From the NCBI GenBank assembly GCA_016281475.1, contig JAEEIS010000178.1:1-22050 (forward strand): DNA of 22,050 bases. The letters run 5' to 3'. Of this stretch, positions 11,971 through 21,530 are shown piece by piece (the stretch's first letter is position 1; every line of letters starts with the position of its first letter). A program made the translations under genes and the position numbers. The stretch is from Bacteroidales bacterium. GTDB lineage: Bacteria > Bacteroidota > Bacteroidia > Bacteroidales > P3. Under the pieces are notes generated by a model that searched no databases, had not been told where the DNA came from, and was given only the letters and a program-made list of their open reading frames with translations.

Positions 11971-11991
11971 ACGCCGTCAGGCGTTTTCTTT
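11971..11991 (+). terminator. intrinsic terminator 1 after the ABC exporter
   Basis: A 5-bp GC-rich stem ACGCC/GGCGT with loop GTCA (11971-11984) is followed by TTTCTTT. It lies 69 bp after the exporter stop, in the right orientation to end the sufC-sufD-exporter transcript. Confidence 0.6.
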
Positions 11992-11992
11992 C

Positions 11993-12041
11993 AACCCAAA
12001 TCGGTCATTAGGGTTTATGGCAGTAATGACCGATTTGGGTT
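11993..12041. repeat. 18-bp perfect inverted repeat with 13-nt loop
   Basis: AACCCAAATCGGTCATTA at 11993-12010 is exactly repeated in inverse orientation at 12024-12041. No T-run follows, so a terminator role is unlikely. The 13-bp core TGACCGATTTGGG (12027-12039) occurs again at 14806-14818, next to the rpsA terminator, so the element is a dispersed repeat. Confidence 0.85.
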
Positions 12042-12072
12042 CAATAGCCCTATGCCAACATCCTCCTCCTAT

Positions 12073-12347: not shown

Positions 12348-12545
12348 CTTTATGCAACTTCAAACAATGAAAGCAACTCTACCTACGGATGTTATTGGAC
12401 AAAAACATGGTATTCAAATACTAGTAAAGCACGGTATGTAAATATTACACCGCAAAGTTTTTTATGGCCTAGTACTGGTTCTGGCAATACTACGTACCGT
12501 CATGCTCGAATGTCACACCGCTTACTCAGGGAGGTCACTCAATAA
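12348..12545 (+). pseudogene. C-terminal remnant of a FISUMP/DUF1566-type surface protein
   Basis: From just after a TAA at 12345 the frame runs open for 65 codons to a TAA at 12543-12545 without a start codon in a sensible place. The peptide contains YGCYWTKTWYSNTSKARYVN and ends RMSHRLLREVTQ, which fits the C-terminal pattern of Bacteroidetes FISUMP/DUF1566-like domains (G-x-YW-(S/T)-x-T-x-Y ... V-R-x-V-R-(E/D)-V). A strong intrinsic terminator sits 32 bp after the stop, just where the intact gene would have had one. I therefore read this as the leftover 3' end of a secreted or surface lipoprotein gene whose 5' part has been deleted. It is shorter than anything I would expect to be functional. 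Confidence 0.65.
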
Positions 12546-12962: not shown

Positions 12963-13013
12963 TAACCCCACACTTGCAGTGTGGGGTTACCGAGAGCCAG
13001 CCCCTCCGGGGCT
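12963..13013. repeat. REP-like double hairpin, repeat copy A
   Basis: First hairpin: 12-bp arms TAACCCCACACT (12963-12974) and AGTGTGGGGTTA (12978-12989), loop TGC. Second hairpin: AGCCCC (12999-13004) and GGGGCT (13008-13013), loop TCC. The 33 bases 12980-13012 recur at 13917-13949 with two mismatches, in the same orientation. The two copies lie on either side of the first TA module. Confidence 0.85.
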
Positions 13014-13120: not shown

Positions 13121-13354
13121 ATGACTACTGTGGACATAAGAGCAGCCATCAACAACGAGCTGAACAGTTTCACGCCCGACATGCTGCTGCAGGTTGCCGA
13201 ATATATGAAATCGCTGCGCGAGGAAAGACATTCCTCCAAGAGCACCACCATCACACCGCTGGTCGCCAGCCTTTTCACTGGCCACTCCATTAGTCTCACT
13301 GATGACGAACTGGACCATATGAAAGAGGCCTACCTTAAAGAGAAATATTTATGA
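13121..13354 (+). CDS. type II antitoxin of TA module 1 (VapB-like position)
   Basis: A 77-residue protein, MTTVDIRAAINNELNSF..., with a helical N-terminal half, a basic middle (REERHSSKS) and an acidic C-terminal tail DDELDHMKEAYLKEKYL. The tail matches the toxin-wrapping ends of small Bacteroidales antitoxins that precede PIN toxins. The stop overlaps the start of the PIN-domain gene in an ATGA (13351-13354), the classical TA coupling. I do not recognise the DNA-binding fold with certainty. The frame is intact, unlike that of its partner. The assignment rests mainly on size, tail and context. Confidence 0.8.
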   Translation: MTTVDIRAAINNELNSFTPDMLLQVAEYMKSLREERHSSKSTTITPLVASLFTGHSISLTDDELDHMKEAYLKEKYL

Positions 13355-13761
13355 GACATATTTTTCTTGACACCAACGTCCTGCTTGACCTGTTGTTGGA
13401 AAGGTCTCCCTAGGATCGCGACACAGCCATGCTGCTCAGCATGGCCGACCGTAAAGAGATAGCTTTACTATGCTGCCCATTGTCATTTTCGACAGCGATA
13501 TATTTGATGCAACGGCTGAAATACAGTCGTCATGAAATTGTAACCAAACTATCGGTTGTCAAATCTCTTTGCACAATCACCCCTATCGACGACGCAATAC
13601 TCGACCGCATGCTACATTGCGACTTCAAGGATTTGGAAGATGCCATCCAGTATTATTCGGCACTTGCTGCTGGAGCGGAGATAATCATCACACGCAACAC
13701 AAAGGACTTCTCGACAGCCGACATACCTGTACTTACTCCGTCGGAGTTTTTAGGCAAATAA
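13351..13761 (+). pseudogene. PIN-domain (VapC-like) toxin gene of TA module 1, interrupted by an in-frame TAG
   Basis: Reading from the ATG that overlaps the antitoxin stop, the frame gives MRHIFLDTNVLLDLLLERSP, a TAG at 13411-13413 (codon 21), then DRDTAMLLSMADRK... through to a TAA, 136 positions in all. PIN features are otherwise intact: D7 in LDTN, acidic residues in DFKDLEDAIQ (D94, E96, D97), and D119 in TRNTKDF. PIN toxins are Mg-dependent RNases that cut tRNA or mRNA. The stop removes all but 20 residues. Restart at the ATG at 13429 would give a 110-residue product without the first catalytic Asp. No frameshift is needed, so one base change accounts for the defect. Suppression of the stop is an alternative. 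Confidence 0.85.
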
Positions 13762-13810
13762 ATAAACAAAAAAATACATTAGGCAATCCCCACTCACGGC
13801 TTTTCTGCCA

Positions 13811-13883
13811 GCGTGCCGGAGGCACGCGCTCTCACACCCCCCGACACCCGTTGCAGATTCCAGAGCGCGTGCCTCCGGCACGC
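13811..13883. repeat. 22-bp perfect inverted repeat, each arm itself a hairpin
   Basis: The arms 13811-13832 and 13862-13883 are exact inverse copies separated by 29 bases. Each arm contains GCGTGCC/GGCACGC with a 3-nt loop (GGA in the left arm, TCC in the right), so the DNA can form one long stem or two small hairpins. No T-run follows. Confidence 0.85.
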
Positions 13884-13907
13884 CCACACATCCCCCGTCC
13901 GCCTCCA

Positions 13908-13949
13908 CACATTGCATGTGGGGTTACCGAGAACCAACCCCTCCGGGGC
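13908..13949. repeat. REP-like repeat copy B
   Basis: Contains CACAT-TGC-ATGTG (13908-13920) and CCCC-TCC-GGGG (13938-13948). The stretch 13917-13949 matches 12980-13012 at 31 of 33 positions in direct orientation. The first stem is shorter than in copy A and partly mismatched. Confidence 0.8.
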
Positions 13950-14175
13950 AAATTACCGTATAACAAATAATCATCTGATATTCACCAATCTATTATGCCT
14001 ATTTCATGATTATCTGATGCGTTTTCTATTCACCAAGTAGACATCGATAAGAGATGAATCGGACATGAATAAGAAACAAGTAGAGGGCAGGCAGGATAAA
14101 ATAAAAATAAACAACCTTGGCACAATAAAAAGTATCGAACAACGTTATTACATAAAAGACTAAAAAGAACACCCC

Positions 14176-14379
14176 ATGACACAAATCACACTAAACGTCG
14201 CTGACGAGAGTTTGTTGCCTATGCTGCGACGGCTAATACGTGCCATCGACGGTGCAGACATCGCTCCACGTCCCCGTCGCATCAGCGGAATCGAACAAGT
14301 CCTGAAGGACAAGACCGAAGGCCGTGTCACCACATGGGACAGCCCACAACAGATGTTTGACACATTGATGGCTCAATGA
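14176..14379 (+). CDS. type II antitoxin of TA module 2 (partner of the YafQ-like toxin)
   Basis: A 67-residue protein, MTQITLNVADESLLPMLRRL..., ending GIEQVLKDKTEGRVTTWDSPQQMFDTLMAQ. The short N-terminal beta strand followed by a helix suggests a ribbon-helix-helix-like or related dimerisation domain. The GI-x-x-V-x-D-x-x-x-GRV...MFDTL tail is the type seen in Bacteroidales antitoxins that precede YafQ/RelE toxins. The TGA stop overlaps the ATG of the toxin frame (14376-14379). The frame is intact. No homology search was possible, so the family name is left open. Confidence 0.82.
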   Translation: MTQITLNVADESLLPMLRRLIRAIDGADIAPRPRRISGIEQVLKDKTEGRVTTWDSPQQMFDTLMAQ

Positions 14380-14654
14380 GATACATCATTCAAACCACCA
14401 AATAGTTTGACAAAGCATTTAAACTTTGCCAACGACGCGGCTACAAGATGGACCATCTGCTTGCGATCGACAATCTATTAGCCGCCACTGGCACACTGCC
14501 ACGAAAATATCGTCCGTACAAACTCGTCAACTTCCCTGGAGGCAACACGTGGGAATGCCATATTGAGCCTGACTGGTTGCTTGTATGGGAACAAAACGAC
14601 ATGCAACTCACCCTGCTGATGCTCGATACTGGCACACATTCCGATATTTTTTAG
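14376..14654 (+). pseudogene. YafQ-family (RelE superfamily) toxin gene of TA module 2, interrupted by an in-frame TAG
   Basis: The frame reads MRYIIQTTK, TAG at 14403-14405 (codon 10), then FDKAFKLCQRRGYKMDHLLA... to the natural TAG at 14652. The full frame is 92 positions, the length of YafQ. The YafQ active-site region is visible: H62, D66 and W67 in CHIEPDW, and H88 and F92 in THSDIF, corresponding to H63, D67, W68, H87 and F91 of E. coli YafQ, a ribosome-dependent mRNase. The residue aligned with E. coli H50 appears to be Tyr48 (RPYKL, where relatives tend to have PHKL). A CAG-to-TAG change would explain the stop (TTKQF expected). Restart at the ATG at 14448 would lose the N-terminal helix. 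Confidence 0.85.
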
Positions 14655-14787: not shown

Positions 14788-14805
14788 GGGGTGAGCTAAC
14801 CCTAT

Positions 14806-14818
14806 TGACCGATTTGGG
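14806..14818. repeat. third copy of the TGACCGATTTGGG core
   Basis: This 13-mer is identical to the core of both arms of the inverted repeat at 11993-12041. Here it stands alone, directly beside the rpsA terminator. Confidence 0.7.
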
Positions 14819-14820
14819 AT

Positions 14821-14850
14821 AAAAAAGCCGGGGCGACGGGCGCTCCGGCT
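14821..14850 (-). terminator. intrinsic terminator of rpsA
   Basis: On the minus strand a 10-bp stem with one wobble (14841-14850 with 14826-14835) and loop CCCGT is followed by a run of six Ts (plus-strand As, 14821-14826). It lies about 40 bp after the rpsA stop. Confidence 0.88.
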
Positions 14851-14890: not shown

Positions 14891-16690
14891 TTATTCGCCC
14901 TTTTGTTCTTTCTCGATCTCCTCCTTGAGGCTGGCAAGGACGCTGAGGTCGCCAAGGGTGGTCTTTTCAAGAGTCTCGTTGATCTTCTTGACGGTCTTCT
15001 TGGTGGCGCGGTCTTTCTTAGCCTCGTCGCTCTCGTTCTTGGCACGCTCGCCTTCGATGGCGTCGTGGAGCACGCGGGTGTGGGAGACGATGATTTTCTT
15101 GTTGTCCTTTGAGAATTCGATGACCTTGAAGTCAAGGGTCTCGCCCTGACGGGCCTTGGTCTTGTCTTCCTTCTCGAGGTGACGCATGGGAGCGAAGCCT
15201 TCAACACCGTAGGGGAGGGTGATGGTTGCGCCCTTGTCGTTCACGCTGGCGACGGTGCCCTGGTGGACGCTGCCGACGGTGAAGAGGGATTCGTAGACAT
15301 CCCAAGGATTCTCTTCGAGCTGCTTGTGGCCGAGGCTGAGACGACGGTTTTCGGCATCGACTTCGAGAACGACGACTTCGATGCTGTCGCCAATCTTGGT
15401 GAACTCGGCGGGGTGCTTGATTTTCTTACTCCAGCTGAGGTCGCTGATGTGGATGAGGCCGTCGACGCCTTCTTCGAGTTCGACGAAGATGCCGAAGTTG
15501 GTGAAGTTGCGGACGGTGGCGGTGTGCTTGCTACCGACGGGGTATTTCTCGGCGATGGTCAGCCACGGGTCGGGCATGAGCTGCTTGAGACCGAGGCTCA
15601 TCTTACGCTGCTCGCGGTCGAGGGAGAGGACGACGGCTTCGACCTCCTGGCCGACCTTGAGGAAGTCCTGTGCGCTGCGCAGGTGCTGGCTCCAGCTCAT
15701 CTCGCTGACGTGGATGAGGCCTTCGACACCGGGGACTACCTCGACGAAGGCACCGTAGTCGGCGATGACGACGACTTTGCCCTTCACGCGGTCGCCCTCT
15801 TTGAGGTTAGCATCGAGAGCATCCCAGGGGTGAGGAGTGAGCTGCTTGAGACCGAGGGCGATGCGGTGCTTCGCCTCGTCGAAGTCGAGGATGACGACGT
15901 TGATTTTCTGATCAAGCTCGACAATGTCTTTCGGGTCGGAGACACGGCCCCAGCTGAGGTCGGTGATGTGGACCAGACCGTCCACGCCGCCCAGGTCGAC
16001 GAACACACCGTAGGGGGTGATGTTCTTGACGGTGCCTTCGAGCACCTGACCTTTTTCGAGGTGGGAGATAATCTCGGCCTTCTGGGCTTCGATTTCGTCC
16101 TCGATGAGGGCCTTGTGGCTGACAACGACGTTCTTGTATTCGTGGTTAATTTTCACGACCTTGAATTCCATGCTCTTGTCGACGAACACATCGTAGTCGC
16201 GAATGGGCTTGACGTCGATCTGCGAACCGGGGAGGAAGGCCTCGATGTTGTCGAAGACGGTGACGATGAGACCACCTTTGGTGCGGCTCTTGACGTAGCC
16301 GGTGATGATTTCCTGATTTTCGTAGGCCTGGTTGACACGCTCCCAAGACTTGAGGATACGAGCCTTTTTGTGGCTGAGGAGGAGCTGACCGTTGGCATCT
16401 TCCTGACTTTCGACGTAGACTTCGATCTTGTCGCCTGCCTTAAAGTCGGGGTTGTAACGCAGTTCGGAAGCGGGGATGACACCGTCGCTCTTGAAACCGA
16501 TGTTGACGACTGCCTCGCGGTCGGTGATGCTGACGATGGTGCCTTCGATGACCTCCTGCTCGGTGAAAGCATTGAAGGTCTGCTCGTACTGCTCAATCAT
16601 CTTTTGTGATTGTTCGTTGTTGACTTCTTTTTTATTGTCGATAGCATCCCAGTCAAAGTCTGCTAACGGCTGCACATTTTTGTAATCCAT
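14891..16690 (-). CDS. rpsA: 30S ribosomal protein S1
   Basis: A 599-residue protein with six S1 RNA-binding domains at about 46-108, 126-193, 213-281, 299-368, 385-455 and 473-537. Domains 3-5 carry the standard YG/FG-x-F-V-(D/E)-L...GLIH(I/V)S-(D/E)-(L/M)SW core (for example GVFVDLGGVDGLVHITDLSW), while 1, 2 and 6 are more divergent, as in other S1 proteins. S1 binds mRNA on the small subunit and helps initiation on mRNAs without a strong Shine-Dalgarno, which fits Bacteroidetes. The C-terminal 55 residues are highly charged and coiled. It has its own promoter, a leader of about 100 nt and a clear terminator, so it is probably transcribed alone. Confidence 0.97.
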   Translation of the reverse strand: MDYKNVQPLADFDWDAIDNKKEVNNEQSQKMIEQYEQTFNAFTEQEVIEGTIVSITDREAVVNIGFKSDGVIPASELRYNPDFKAGDKIEVYVESQEDANGQLLLSHKKARILKSWERVNQAYENQEIITGYVKSRTKGGLIVTVFDNIEAFLPGSQIDVKPIRDYDVFVDKSMEFKVVKINHEYKNVVVSHKALIEDEIEAQKAEIISHLEKGQVLEGTVKNITPYGVFVDLGGVDGLVHITDLSWGRVSDPKDIVELDQKINVVILDFDEAKHRIALGLKQLTPHPWDALDANLKEGDRVKGKVVVIADYGAFVEVVPGVEGLIHVSEMSWSQHLRSAQDFLKVGQEVEAVVLSLDREQRKMSLGLKQLMPDPWLTIAEKYPVGSKHTATVRNFTNFGIFVELEEGVDGLIHISDLSWSKKIKHPAEFTKIGDSIEVVVLEVDAENRRLSLGHKQLEENPWDVYESLFTVGSVHQGTVASVNDKGATITLPYGVEGFAPMRHLEKEDKTKARQGETLDFKVIEFSKDNKKIIVSHTRVLHDAIEGERAKNESDEAKKDRATKKTVKKINETLEKTTLGDLSVLASLKEEIEKEQKGE

Positions 16691-16985: not shown

Positions 16986-19900
16986 ATGAAACGAATCATC
17001 CCTTATCTCATTCTGTTTGCCTTGCTGCCGATGCTGTGCCAGCAGGCTGATGCACAGACCCGTCCGACCAAGGCGAAAGTGACCTTCGACCAGGATTCGA
17101 TAGCCCCGCAGCTGCTGCGCTACCTCAACGGCAACAGCAAGGTGGAGGAGAAAATAGCTGCCAACGCCGAGTTGGTGGGCAATTTTGAGAAGGCATACCT
17201 GAGCCTCGACGAGAAACGCCAGCAACAGGTGGTGGACCTCTACAACGCCGCGCGCAAGACTAAGATGGAACCCACGCCCGACTATGAGAACCTGACGCGG
17301 ACGCTGGTGGCGTACCGTGGCTCGCAGGTGTCGGCGACAGTCTTCGACGAGTGGCTGGCCGCCACCGCCGCCATCATGACCATGACCAGCAAGAAGAAAG
17401 AAATCACCGGCTTTATCGAGTATACCGCCGCCCTGCTGGAGAGCCGCACGTTGTACCGCTCGAAGTCGTCGGTGTGGAAGACGCAGCCCGACGCCACGTT
17501 CCAGCTGGAGGTGCTGCGCAACGACATACGCACCATCTTCAAGGGGTCGGTGGACCTCACCTATATCTCCGGCACGGGCAACAATGCCGACCAGAACACC
17601 ATCTACGGCACCACGGGCACCTACTACTACCTGACCGAGACCTGGGAGGGCAAGGGCGGAAGGCTGACCTGGGAGCGTTGCGGCGTGTCGGCAGCCACCT
17701 GCCACGCCGACCTGGAGGACTATTCGGCCAGCGTGAAACTGCCCAAGTTCACCGCCGACTCGGTGACATTCATCAACAGCAACTATTTCAAGACCCCCAT
17801 CAAAGGATCGGTGGAGGAGGCGTTGAGCACCAAGACCGACGCGGACAAGTACACCTTCCCCAAGTTCCGCTCCTATCAGAAGGACTTCCAGCTGAAGGAT
17901 GTGCTGCCTGGCGTGGATTTCGAGGGCAACTTTATGATGTACGGCCCCCGCTTTGTGACCAACGACGAGAAGAACCCCGCCTCGATGATATTCTACCGCG
18001 AGGGAAAGCGTTTCCTGGTGGTGACGGCGACCAAGTTTGCGGTGCTACCGCACATGCTCACCTCGGAGCGTGCGGCGGTGAAGATGTATATAGGCCAGGA
18101 CTCTATCTGCAACGCCGGTGTGCTGGTGCGCTACACCACCGCAGACAACAAGGTGAACATGATTAACAACACCAAGCGCAACTACTACAGCCCCTATACC
18201 GACAGCTACCACCAGCTGGATATCTACTGCGAGAATATCAACTGGCTGATAGATAAGGACATTATCGAGTTTAACATGGTGGCGCAGAACAACACTCAGA
18301 CCTTTGTCACCTTTGAGTCGAACCGCTACTACTCGCTGCAGAAGGCGATGGAGGTGCAGGGCATAGACCGAGAGAGCCCCGTGGTGCGCGTATATAAATA
18401 TATGAAGGCGCACGACATGAAGAAGGACTTCTCACTGGTGGCGTTGGAGAATGCCATCCGCATGGACGAGAGCCAGACCAAGCTGATGGTGCACGGGCTG
18501 TCGAAGGCGGGACTGGTGTCTTACGACGAGGGCACGAAGCGCATACATGTGCACGACAAGCTGATAGGCTTCTACAAGGCCATTGTGAAGCAGCAGGGGC
18601 ACGACTACGACGCGCTGACGCTGCAGTCGGAGACCACCGACAACAACGCCGAACTGGAGCTGTCGACCCTCGACCTGCGGGTGCACGGCATTAAGAAATT
18701 TGTGGTGAGCGACAGCCAGTTGGTGGTGGTGAAGCCCTATGGCGGCGACATCATAGTGAAGAAAAACAGGGACATCCTCTTCTCGGGCTTTATCAATGTG
18801 GGCCGTTTCGAGATGAACGTCACCGATGCCTCGTTCTACTACGAAGACTTCAAATTCGACCTACCACAAATCGACTCCATACGCTTCTACGTGACCAGCT
18901 TCACCGACCCCAACAAGGAGGTGATGGTGCGCACACCGCTGTTTAACCTGGTGGGCGACATACAGGTGGACAAGCCCGACAACCACTGCGGACTGAAGAA
19001 GAACAAGGAGTACCCTATCTTCAACAGTGTGCAGCCGAGCTATGTGTATTACGACCGTCCGTTTATCTTCAACGGCGTGTATAACCGCGAGAACTTCTAC
19101 TATTCGCTCTACCCCTTCGTCATCAAGCAGCTGACCGACTTCAAGACCGACAGCCTGGAATTCCTAGGCGCGCTGACCTCGGCAGGCATCTTCCCCGAGA
19201 TACAGGAACCACTGAAGGTGCAGCGCGACTACTCGCTGGGATTCATCTCGCAGGTGCCGTCGGGCGGCTATCCCACCTACGGCGGCAAGGGCACTTTCTA
19301 CAAGACGGTGGACCTCAGCTATCGGGGTCTGCGCGGCGAAGGTACGCTGGAATACCTCACAGCCACAGCCAAAACCACACGCTACCTCTTTATGCCCGAC
19401 TCGATGATGGCGCATACCGATACATTCTACGTGAAGGAGGAAGACAACTTCCCCGACTGCCGCAACGGCAAGACACTGATACGCTGGTATCCATACAAAG
19501 ATTCGATGACGGTGTCGCAGCTGAAGGATGGCACCCCGTTCCAGATGTACCACGGAGTGACTCAGCTGGCAGGACGTTTCACCATGCAGCCTAAGGGCGC
19601 AACAGGCTACGGCACCGCCACACTCCATGAAGGGAAGTTGAAATCGAAACGTTTCGAGTTTAAGACAATGGAGATGGATGCCGCGCAGACGGACTTCACC
19701 TTGATGTCGACCAAATACAACAACGTGGCTTTCGAGGCTAAGAATATGCGGTCGCATGTGGACTACGAAGAGCACACGGGACGGTTCACCTCCAACGCCG
19801 ATTTGGAACGCACACTGCTGCCCGCCTTGGGCTACGCAGCCTGGGTGGACCAATACACATGGAACTGGGACCACAAGTTCCTTGCCCTCGACAACAGCAA

Positions 19901-21530
19901 GAGCATGGAGACTGGCGGCATGGAGGTGGTACCACTGCGCGACCGTGCCAAGAGGCTCAACCAAATGCCCGGCGCACGGTTTGAAAGCACCGACCCCAAG
20001 CTGAAGGACATACGCTTCTGTGCCATCAACAGCACCTACCAGTACGACAACCTGGAGCTGTCGAACCACAACGTCTACGCCCTACCCATCGCCGACGCGG
20101 TCATCGCCCCGGCGGGCGACTCGCTGCATATCAGCAAAGGCGGCGACATGAGCCTCATCCAAGGCGGCGAACTGCTCTTCCCACGCGACAGCGGCTTCCA
20201 CCTATTCTATAATTGCGACCTGATGGTGAAGAACGGCCAACAGTATGGCGGAAAGGGCTATATAGACTATGTGGGAGTGGACGAGAAGAAACAGCCTATC
20301 TACATGACCGAAATCGCCCCTAATGCACAGGGAGTAAGCGTTGCCAACGGCACCATCGCCGACAGTGCCAACTTTACCCTATCGGAGGCGTTCGGCTTTG
20401 CTGGCAAGGTGAGTGCCGACGCACAGCATAGGTTCTTCCGCTTCGACGGCGGTGTGCGCCTGCTGCACAAATGCGCCCCAAAAGACCAGCTGGGGCTGCT
20501 GGCATATGCCGACTACCTCGACCCCGAAGACATCCGCGTCACCGTGCCTGAGAACCCCGTCGACTGGAAGGGCAATCCCATCAGTGCCTCGCTGCATCTG
20601 GCACAGATGGGGCTCAAACCCACCGCAGCTTTCTTAGTCAAGCAACAACCTGGCATAGAGTTGCTCAGCAGCCACGGACTACTACACTACGACGAGGGTG
20701 CCAGCACCTATACCATCACCTCGCAGGAGAAACTTGACGACAAGGAGGTCATAGACCGCTTCCTGACCCTCCACACCGACAACTGCGTCATCGAAGGCGA
20801 AGGCCCCATCGACTTCGGCGTGGGCGAAGGGCCTGTGGTGGTACGCTCGTATGGCACGGTCTATTACGACCCACAGAACGAGAACGACTTTCTGATGAAG
20901 ACCATTTTCGGCATCACATTCCCCATTGACAACGGGCTTATCACACAGATGGCAAAGCAGATTGAGAACGACCTGCGACCGGATGCCGCCGACCGCGACA
21001 ACGACCTGCTCGACCGTGCGCTCAACTACAACATGGGCGACCCCAACGGCGAGCTGGCATACCAGACCTACCTCAGCACGGGTGCCTTCGACAAACTGGA
21101 AGGCTGCTTGGACAACACCATCATGTTCGAGGGCTTGCGCTGGCAGTATACACCCACATTGGGCTACCATGCCAGCGGCACTACTGCCATCTGCAACGTG
21201 GGCAAGCAGCAGCTGCACGTCAACGTGCGCGTCAAGGCCCAGCTCTTCAAGAAAGGCAGCGAGACCTATTTGGTGCTATATATCCAGGTTGCCAACGACC
21301 ACTGGTACTATTTCAAGTACGAGTATAAGACTCATCACCTGAGTATCAACAGTAGCGTGGGTGAATGGAATGACAAGCTTGTAGGCCTGAAGAAGGACAA
21401 GCGCGTGATGGAGGGCTTCTCCTACTCACTGACTAACTCGCGCAACGAGATTCAGAGTTTCCTCTCTGGCTTCTCGGGCGACTCGTCAGACATGGAAGAA
21501 GAGGAAGAGGTGGAAGAGGACGACGAATAG
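16986..21530 (+). CDS. very large exported protein of unknown function (1514 residues)
   Basis: Starts with a clear signal peptide (MKRIIPYLILFALLPMLC...ADAQ, cleavage likely after ADA). The long mature part alternates charged helical stretches (about residues 30-130 and 470-540) with beta-rich, aromatic regions, for example RGEGTLEYLTATA, GYGTATLHEGKL and GGKGYIDYVG. It ends in an acidic tail, MEEEEEVEEDDE. There is no lipobox, no further membrane helix and no T9SS sorting domain at the end, so a periplasmic or peripherally membrane-bound location is the simplest guess. I do not recognise a family. The reading frame is continuous over 4.5 kb, with a promoter in front and a strong terminator behind, so it is a real, monocistronic gene. 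It is divergent from rpsA. Confidence 0.93.
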   Translation: MKRIIPYLILFALLPMLCQQADAQTRPTKAKVTFDQDSIAPQLLRYLNGNSKVEEKIAANAELVGNFEKAYLSLDEKRQQQVVDLYNAARKTKMEPTPDYENLTRTLVAYRGSQVSATVFDEWLAATAAIMTMTSKKKEITGFIEYTAALLESRTLYRSKSSVWKTQPDATFQLEVLRNDIRTIFKGSVDLTYISGTGNNADQNTIYGTTGTYYYLTETWEGKGGRLTWERCGVSAATCHADLEDYSASVKLPKFTADSVTFINSNYFKTPIKGSVEEALSTKTDADKYTFPKFRSYQKDFQLKDVLPGVDFEGNFMMYGPRFVTNDEKNPASMIFYREGKRFLVVTATKFAVLPHMLTSERAAVKMYIGQDSICNAGVLVRYTTADNKVNMINNTKRNYYSPYTDSYHQLDIYCENINWLIDKDIIEFNMVAQNNTQTFVTFESNRYYSLQKAMEVQGIDRESPVVRVYKYMKAHDMKKDFSLVALENAIRMDESQTKLMVHGLSKAGLVSYDEGTKRIHVHDKLIGFYKAIVKQQGHDYDALTLQSETTDNNAELELSTLDLRVHGIKKFVVSDSQLVVVKPYGGDIIVKKNRDILFSGFINVGRFEMNVTDASFYYEDFKFDLPQIDSIRFYVTSFTDPNKEVMVRTPLFNLVGDIQVDKPDNHCGLKKNKEYPIFNSVQPSYVYYDRPFIFNGVYNRENFYYSLYPFVIKQLTDFKTDSLEFLGALTSAGIFPEIQEPLKVQRDYSLGFISQVPSGGYPTYGGKGTFYKTVDLSYRGLRGEGTLEYLTATAKTTRYLFMPDSMMAHTDTFYVKEEDNFPDCRNGKTLIRWYPYKDSMTVSQLKDGTPFQMYHGVTQLAGRFTMQPKGATGYGTATLHEGKLKSKRFEFKTMEMDAAQTDFTLMSTKYNNVAFEAKNMRSHVDYEEHTGRFTSNADLERTLLPALGYAAWVDQYTWNWDHKFLALDNSKSMETGGMEVVPLRDRAKRLNQMPGARFESTDPKLKDIRFCAINSTYQYDNLELSNHNVYALPIADAVIAPAGDSLHISKGGDMSLIQGGELLFPRDSGFHLFYNCDLMVKNGQQYGGKGYIDYVGVDEKKQPIYMTEIAPNAQGVSVANGTIADSANFTLSEAFGFAGKVSADAQHRFFRFDGGVRLLHKCAPKDQLGLLAYADYLDPEDIRVTVPENPVDWKGNPISASLHLAQMGLKPTAAFLVKQQPGIELLSSHGLLHYDEGASTYTITSQEKLDDKEVIDRFLTLHTDNCVIEGEGPIDFGVGEGPVVVRSYGTVYYDPQNENDFLMKTIFGITFPIDNGLITQMAKQIENDLRPDAADRDNDLLDRALNYNMGDPNGELAYQTYLSTGAFDKLEGCLDNTIMFEGLRWQYTPTLGYHASGTTAICNVGKQQLHVNVRVKAQLFKKGSETYLVLYIQVANDHWYYFKYEYKTHHLSINSSVGEWNDKLVGLKKDKRVMEGFSYSLTNSRNEIQSFLSGFSGDSSDMEEEEEVEEDDE

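What the first reader, a model, noticed from the sequence alone, without database searches (positions are those of the whole stretch)
13121..14654. Two neighbouring toxin-antitoxin modules, both with an intact antitoxin and a toxin cut by a single in-frame TAG
Both TA pairs keep the ATGA coupling, an intact antitoxin, and a toxin frame (PIN and YafQ-like) that is full-length and family-like except for one amber codon close to the 5' end (codon 21 and codon 10). Neither toxin has a frameshift. Two unrelated toxins failing in the same way is unlikely to be random decay over a long time: either both were recently silenced by nonsense mutations, leaving antitoxins that could still act as anti-addiction factors, or the amber codons are read through by suppression and throttle toxin output. 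TAG is used as the ordinary stop of sufC, recX, the ABC exporter, the 1514-residue gene and the YafQ-like gene itself, so genome-wide reassignment is not the explanation.
Basis: partly seen in the sequence, partly recalled or inferred. Interest (0 to 1): 0.8.

Follow-up and report, generated by a model that had tools for sequence, protein, structure and literature searches.

The report
Two toxin-antitoxin pairs with nonsense-cut toxins
Two neighbouring bacterial toxin-antitoxin pairs have each kept the antitoxin but lost the toxin to one early stop codon, most likely the ordinary way such self-poisoning genes fall silent rather than a special reading of that codon.

Summary
A PIN_3-type toxin frame (13351-13761) and a YafQ-type toxin frame (14376-14654) each follow an intact antitoxin with an ATGA overlap. 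Each has a single in-frame TAG (codons 21 and 10) and no frameshift.

Best reading: ordinary silencing by nonsense mutation in a small acquired islet. Both truncated proteins and antitoxin 1 are each on 7 database contigs, and no near-identical full-length toxin is among the best 120 hits, so a one-off assembly error is unlikely. The two close relatives that show the whole site lack the islet.

Of 100 YafQ-like matches in 190 genomes of the same family, 5 are full-length frames with one internal stop (3 TAG, 2 TAA); three more are broken otherwise. Four stop-bearing relatives keep a full-length antitoxin; one (L066) has a TAG in its antitoxin too. Given nonsense, TAG is expected in 40-53% of cases, so two TAGs have a chance near 0.2.

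No amber-suppressor tRNA was found in four close relatives; TAG ends 5 of 15 window genes and interrupts none. Readthrough is unsupported but not excluded; an anti-addiction role is untested.

The parts
13121..13354 (+). antitoxin 1, 77 aa, intact; no family model at cut-off
   Evidence: open frame; 57-62% identical over 76 codons to antitoxins preceding six intact PIN toxins; cluster P0241 on 7 contigs
13351..13761 (+). PIN_3-type toxin frame, interrupted at codon 21; ATGA overlap with antitoxin 1
   Evidence: post-stop piece PIN_3 E 1.5e-9; four uninterrupted relatives at 69-71%
13411..13413 (+). in-frame TAG, codon 21 of toxin 1; one invariant residue stands here in 94 of 94 anchored relatives (96 examined, 2 lacked the anchor)
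14176..14379 (+). antitoxin 2, 67 aa, intact; no family model
   Evidence: homologues next to YafQ-like toxins, 52-62% identical over 67 codons
14376..14654 (+). YafQ-type toxin frame, interrupted at codon 10; ATGA overlap with antitoxin 2
   Evidence: post-stop piece YafQ_toxin E 2.2e-19, TIGR02385 RelE_StbE E 8.3e-9
14403..14405 (+). in-frame TAG, codon 10 of toxin 2; six different residues stand here, by ungapped numbering, in 106 relatives of 91-93 aa
11902..14890 (.). islet between the ABC exporter gene and rpsA holding both modules; relatives L003 and L017 have only 219 and 789 bases between the same genes

Best explanation
Two ordinary chromosomal type II toxin-antitoxin modules, a PIN-domain RNase and a YafQ/RelE-type mRNA interferase, entered the gap between an ABC exporter gene and rpsA in a gut-type Bacteroidales species. 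Each later lost its toxin through one early nonsense mutation. The antitoxins remain because an antitoxin cannot safely be lost before its toxin, so the usual visible intermediate is 'toxin dead, antitoxin intact'. Shown: anatomy, absence of the islet in two relatives, intact homologues elsewhere, codon-level constraint, and similar broken toxins in relatives. Inferred: that the toxins are inactive, the order of events, and that no readthrough occurs.
For: Single TAG in each, frame otherwise open. Full-length relatives exist: 6 of 190 genomes have uninterrupted PIN toxins at 72-75% to query P0002, and 92-aa YafQ proteins reach 74%. Third-position mismatches far exceed second-position ones against relatives (PIN 0.58-0.66 against 0.09-0.12; YafQ 0.48-0.65 against 0.13-0.27). 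Broken relatives are common: 8 of 100 YafQ matches are flagged with an in-frame stop; read one by one, 5 are full-length frames with one stop (3 TAG, 2 TAA: L066, L093, L094, L081, L088), L078 and L095 are frameshifted and L096 is a remnant. 2 of 58 PIN matches are flagged: one clean TAA (L051), one decayed gene. Control: Maf, 4 flagged among the listed part of 188 matches, all four stops at the native end. Stop-bearing toxins L051, L081, L088 and L093 have full-length antitoxins. P0001, P0121 and P0241 are each on 7 contigs with no near-identical full-length toxin among the best 120 hits. Expected TAG share 0.40-0.53. Decay of TA loci by nonsense mutation is described in PMC7167474 (passages read).
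Against: Both toxins of one islet being cut is more than independent rates would give, so a shared cause such as relaxed selection on the islet is needed; the case was also picked because it looked odd. Survivorship is not absolute: in L066 the antitoxin carries a TAG (codon 13) as well as the toxin. The window's own genome is not held, so its tRNAs and other TAG-bearing genes are unseen. The frames behind the stops are still clean, which fits recent loss but would also fit use.
Confidence: 0.86

Rival explanations
1. The toxins were lost and the antitoxins are now kept by selection as anti-addiction factors against incoming elements with matching toxins (compatible with the best explanation, adding a use).
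For: Antitoxins intact, with third-position excess against relatives; uninterrupted PIN and YafQ relatives are present in the same bacterial family. The anti-addiction model is described in PMC2654758 (passages read).
Against: Survivorship explains intact antitoxins without selection. Constraint against distant relatives mostly predates toxin loss, and the window antitoxins have a higher ratio of first-plus-second to third-position change (AT1 0.39-0.50, AT2 0.37-0.51) than most relative pairs shown (AT1 0.21-0.50, AT2 0-0.38). No plasmid or incoming toxin was searched for.
Confidence: 0.2
2. The TAGs are read through at a low rate by suppression, throttling toxin output.
For: Frames behind both TAGs are clean and full-length. 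A relative's pair, L066, carries one TAG in each gene with otherwise clean frames.
Against: No CUA tRNA found in 4 close relatives: 11 pattern hits, of which ARAGORN recognises four, each tRNA-Leu with anticodon UAG. 0 of 15 other window genes has an internal stop and 5 of 15 end in TAG. Broken relatives also use TAA and frameshifts at other places. In the L066 genome TAG ends 6 of 18 large frames in a 20-kb stretch and the tRNA pattern has no hit.
Confidence: 0.04
3. Assembly or sequencing error at both sites.
For: Read data are not available.
Against: Each truncated call and antitoxin 1 is on 7 contigs, with two sequence variants for P0001 and P0241, and no near-identical full-length form is among the best 120 hits. 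The contigs could not be opened, and some may come from the same reads.
Confidence: 0.02
4. Translation restarts downstream of each TAG (ATG 13429 or 13508; ATG 14448) and makes a shortened protein with a use of its own, for example binding the antitoxin.
For: Restart-length calls recur: P0100 (84 aa, 67% identical) for PIN; P0178 (68 aa) and P0180 (78 aa) for YafQ.
Against: The PIN restart product lacks the first acidic motif (FLDTN), which PIN nucleases need by general knowledge (recalled). The recurrences may be further broken genes: P0180 resembles L078, whose toxin start is out of frame.
Confidence: 0.05

Closest known systems
YafQ (DinJ-YafQ) type II toxin, Pfam PF15738; solved structures 4ml0, 4ml2, 4q2u
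   Same: Post-stop frame matches the YafQ model over profile 9-87 of 88; the intact relative P0123 matches solved YafQ chains at E 3e-9 to 4e-8
   Different: Frame cut at codon 10; the post-stop piece scores below the NCBI YafQ cut-off TIGR00053 (33.4 against 87.25) but above RelE_StbE TIGR02385; antitoxin 2 has no family hit
PIN_3-family (PF13470) type II toxin of Bacteroidales
   Same: PIN_3 hit; antitoxin upstream with ATGA overlap, as in six relatives with toxins 72-75% identical to P0002
   Different: Frame cut at codon 21; no credible solved relative found by sequence with P0002 (best E 0.88)
Decaying chromosomal TA loci such as ccdO157 of E. coli
   Same: Toxin-antitoxin locus degenerating on the chromosome, with nonsense mutation named as a route of decay (PMC7167474, passages; PMC2654758, passages)
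   Different: Other families and host; two adjacent modules in one islet. The primary ccdO157 paper was seen only in reference lists, not read

Membership tests
YafQ-type type II TA module | Toxin frame matches the YafQ model | tested here: met
   Post-stop piece PF15738 E 2.2e-19, 70 bits against cut-off 30
YafQ-type type II TA module | Antitoxin gene directly upstream, overlapping | tested here: met
   14176-14379, ATGA overlap; similar arrangement in many relatives
YafQ-type type II TA module | Uninterrupted toxin gene | tested here: not met
   TAG at codon 10: a broken member, not a working module
PIN-domain type II TA module | PIN domain toxin with upstream antitoxin | tested here: met
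   PF13470 E 1.5e-9; antitoxin homologous to those of six relatives
PIN-domain type II TA module | Uninterrupted toxin gene | tested here: not met
   TAG at codon 21
Amber-readthrough or recoded gene | Suppressor tRNA or reassigned TAG | tested here: inconclusive
   Own genome not held; none found in four close relatives with one pattern that had no positive control; TAG is a terminator in 5 of 15 window genes
Amber-readthrough or recoded gene | TAG position conserved among homologues | tested here: not met
   94 of 94 anchored PIN relatives and 106 YafQ relatives of 91-93 aa have a residue at the site; these are protein records, so genes cut there would be missed, but none of the 10 stop-flagged matches read has TAG at these codons
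Anti-addiction antitoxin | Neutralises toxins of incoming elements | not testable with these tools
   Needs a bench assay

The most novel reading that the evidence does not exclude
Both toxins are made at a trickle by amber readthrough in this species, a shared translational throttle set on two unrelated toxins of one islet.
Probability: 0.04. Interest if true: 0.8.

Novelty: new member of a known kind. Interest (0 to 1): 0.15.

Why it matters
It is a clean snapshot of how addiction modules die: toxin first, by point mutation, with the antitoxin left behind. The family-wide count (5 of 100 YafQ-like matches are full-length frames with one internal stop) gives a rough measure of how often this is seen in uncultured Bacteroidales, and L066, where the antitoxin is cut too, shows the order is not absolute. 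It warns against reading single in-frame TAGs in toxin genes as recoding.

Tried and rejected
Genome-wide recoding: rejected for the window (TAG ends recX, the 7309-8115 gene, sufC, the ABC exporter and the 1514-aa gene; no internal stops in 15 genes).

Origin from a TAG-recoded phage: scans of viral contigs found 27 YafQ relatives at 34-43% identity to P0122, none with an in-frame stop, and no relative of the PIN toxin P0002; no support.

Anti-phage system: no PADLOC hit for the two antitoxins and the two post-stop pieces. RNA element: only the two tRNA-Leu genes reach an Rfam cut-off in the window. A possible gene remnant at 12348-12545 has no Pfam or NCBIfam hit.

Suppressor tRNA lead: a sequence conserved in four relatives looked like a CUA anticodon in the pattern scan, but ARAGORN calls it tRNA-Leu with anticodon UAG. 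The backwards control pattern gave 4 hits in the same genomes, and the pattern had no positive control for a true suppressor.

Mended on re-check: I first took 7 of the 8 flagged YafQ matches as nonsense cases. Reading the frames again leaves 5; L095 is a frameshift and L096 a remnant. L066's antitoxin, which I had noted only as short, has an in-frame TAG. It was missed by the '0 of 29' flag because the matched stretch was only a part of that antitoxin. For that I raised readthrough from 0.03 to 0.04 and lowered the best explanation from 0.87 to 0.86.

Limits: no scan of metagenome contigs was available, so the 7 contigs behind P0001, P0121 and P0241 could not be opened. The genomes are metagenomic or unnamed assemblies, so some of their stops may be errors. 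The Maf listing is only part of its 188 matches. L094 has no recognisable antitoxin or ATG start, and L096 no antitoxin.

Full report
What is there. The window carries two adjacent antitoxin-toxin pairs in the gap between an ABC exporter gene (ends 11901) and rpsA (14891-16690, minus strand). Pair 1: antitoxin 13121-13354 and a toxin frame 13351-13761, overlapping by ATGA, with TAG at 13411-13413 (codon 21). Pair 2: antitoxin 14176-14379 and a toxin frame 14376-14654, again with ATGA, with TAG at 14403-14405 (codon 10). The pieces behind the stops match Pfam PIN_3 (E 1.5e-9) and YafQ_toxin (E 2.2e-19). Neither frame has a second internal stop or a frameshift.

Where it comes from. No whole genome is held for the window. 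The 1514-aa neighbour gene has relatives at 91-94% amino-acid identity in four Bacteroidales assemblies (L001, L002, L003, L017; L002 and L017 are titled sheep and goat omasum) and at 43-79% in 19 other loci, several titled rumen or horse faeces. In L003 and L017, the two loci that hold both the ABC exporter gene and rpsA, only 219 and 789 bases separate them, against about 3,000 in the window. The other 21 loci do not show both orthologues, so the site could not be judged there. A short open frame at 12348-12545 may be a gene remnant but matches no family.

Are the stops errors? The protein database holds the window's truncated toxin calls as P0001 (84 aa) and P0121 (68 aa), and antitoxin 1 as P0241 (77 aa); each is on 7 contigs, and the P0001 and P0241 clusters each hold two sequences. 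The next-best toxins are 71% (PIN) and 74% (YafQ) identical at most among the best 120 listed. A gene without the stop should have been called full-length and listed near 100%; none is. The contigs could not be opened, so I cannot prove that they are independent samples or that all seven carry both stops.

Do relatives have intact toxins? Yes. Six of 190 genomes of the same family have uninterrupted PIN toxins at 72-75% identity to P0002, each preceded by a homologous antitoxin with ATGA overlap (L033-L038). YafQ relatives of 92 aa reach 74% identity. At the PIN stop site 94 anchored relatives (of 96 examined; 2 lacked the anchor motif) share one invariant residue. At the YafQ site 106 relatives of 91-93 aa carry six different residues by ungapped numbering.

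How recent is the loss? Against relatives, mismatches behind the stop fall mainly on third codon positions (PIN: first 0.25-0.30, second 0.09-0.12, third 0.58-0.66, six relatives; YafQ: first 0.21-0.40, second 0.13-0.27, third 0.48-0.65, thirteen relatives). The ratio of first-plus-second to third-position change for the window's PIN piece (0.29-0.34) is somewhat higher than among the relatives (0.16-0.32, 13 of 15 pairs at or below 0.23 or so), while for YafQ it is similar (0.34-0.52 against 0.21-0.62 in the 25 pairs printed). The antitoxins behave alike: AT1 0.39-0.50 against 0.21-0.50 among relatives, AT2 0.37-0.51 against 0-0.38 in the 20 pairs printed. So most of the divergence looks like that of used frames, and the stops probably came late; some relaxation in the window's lineage is possible but not established.

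Is 'two TAGs' special? Counting all single-base changes to a stop in intact relatives (6 PIN, 12 YafQ genes), TAG makes up 0.40-0.43 for PIN and 0.51-0.53 for YafQ under three transition weights. Two TAGs given two nonsense events have a chance of about 0.2. Broken toxins are also common nearby. Of 100 YafQ matches in 190 genomes, 8 are flagged with an in-frame stop (4 TAG, 3 TAA, 1 TGA). I read all eight. Five are full-length frames with one internal stop: L066, L093 and L094 (TAG) and L081 and L088 (TAA), at different places except that the TAGs of L066 and L094 fall at the same late site. L078 (the flagged TAG is the antitoxin's own terminator) and L095 are toxins whose start lies in another frame, and L096 is a remnant without its first part. 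Of 58 PIN matches 2 are flagged: one clean single TAA (L051) and one decayed gene with several stops (L098). Control: Maf, a housekeeping gene with 188 matches (not all listed), has 4 flagged among those listed, and all four stops lie at the native end.

Antitoxins beside broken toxins. In one search, L051, L081, L088 (within a longer open frame) and L093 have full-length antitoxins upstream; L095's antitoxin frame is open without a detected ATG; L094 and L096 have none recognisable. L066 is an exception to the pattern: its antitoxin has a TAG at codon 13 and its toxin a TAG at codon 64. Antitoxin 2 gave 0 flagged of 29 matches, but the G082 (L066) match covered only a part of that antitoxin and so hid this stop. 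I checked whether G082 might read TAG as sense: in a 20-kb stretch around the pair TAG ends 6 of 18 large non-overlapping frames (TGA 7, TAA 5), ARAGORN finds no tRNA there, and the CUA-tRNA pattern has no hit in the genome. So a dead toxin behind a live antitoxin is a recurring, though not exclusive, state in this bacterial family.

Against this, both toxins of one islet being cut is more than independent rates would give. A shared cause, such as an islet no longer under selection, is the simplest answer; the case was also selected because it looked odd.

Readthrough. TAG ends 5 of the 15 other window genes examined and none has an internal stop. A pattern scan for CUA-anticodon tRNAs in the four closest genomes gave 11 hits (4 for the backwards control), of which ARAGORN recognises four, each tRNA-Leu with anticodon UAG. 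The pattern had no positive control and the species itself is unseen, so this weakens but does not exclude suppression. The 27 viral relatives of the YafQ toxin have no in-frame stop and none was found for PIN, so origin from a TAG-recoded phage has no support.

Literature. The review PMC7167474 (passages read) states that some E. [quoted passage not shown] PMC2654758 (passages read) mentions degeneration of ccdO157 and inactivated hok-sok copies and describes the anti-addiction model. PMC6918082 was looked at for two terms and not used. Searches listed other papers that I did not open; search 46, for four terms including 'intact antitoxin', found none.

Verdict. Interest is low; the readthrough reading keeps about 4%.

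Noticed in passing
L066 1275-1776 (genome G082): A related TA pair in which antitoxin and toxin each carry one in-frame TAG (codons 13 and 64) with otherwise clean frames, in a genome where TAG is an ordinary terminator; a parallel to the window that is not explained beyond decay.
   Followed up: partly
11990-12044 and 14798-14824: A roughly 20-base element (ACCCAAATCGGTCATTA core) forms a hairpin just after the ABC exporter gene and recurs at the far end of the islet with 2 mismatches; exact 16-base copies also occur in L016, L018 and L019 (3 of 154 loci), so it is a dispersed repeat that may mark the islet's ends.
   Followed up: partly
12968-13012 and 13905-13949: An 84% identical 45-base direct repeat brackets the first TA module.
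   Followed up: no
13811-13883: Perfect 22-base inverted repeat with a 29-base loop between the two TA modules.
   Followed up: no
12348-12545: 65-codon open frame that reads like the C-terminal remnant of a larger protein; no Pfam or NCBIfam hit.
   Followed up: partly
16986-21530: 1514-aa protein with no Pfam family above cut-off, with relatives at 43-94% identity in 23 Bacteroidales-type loci.
   Followed up: no
L066 and L094: Two distant YafQ-like toxins (62% and 40% identical to P0123) in different genomes carry TAG at the same late site.
   Followed up: no
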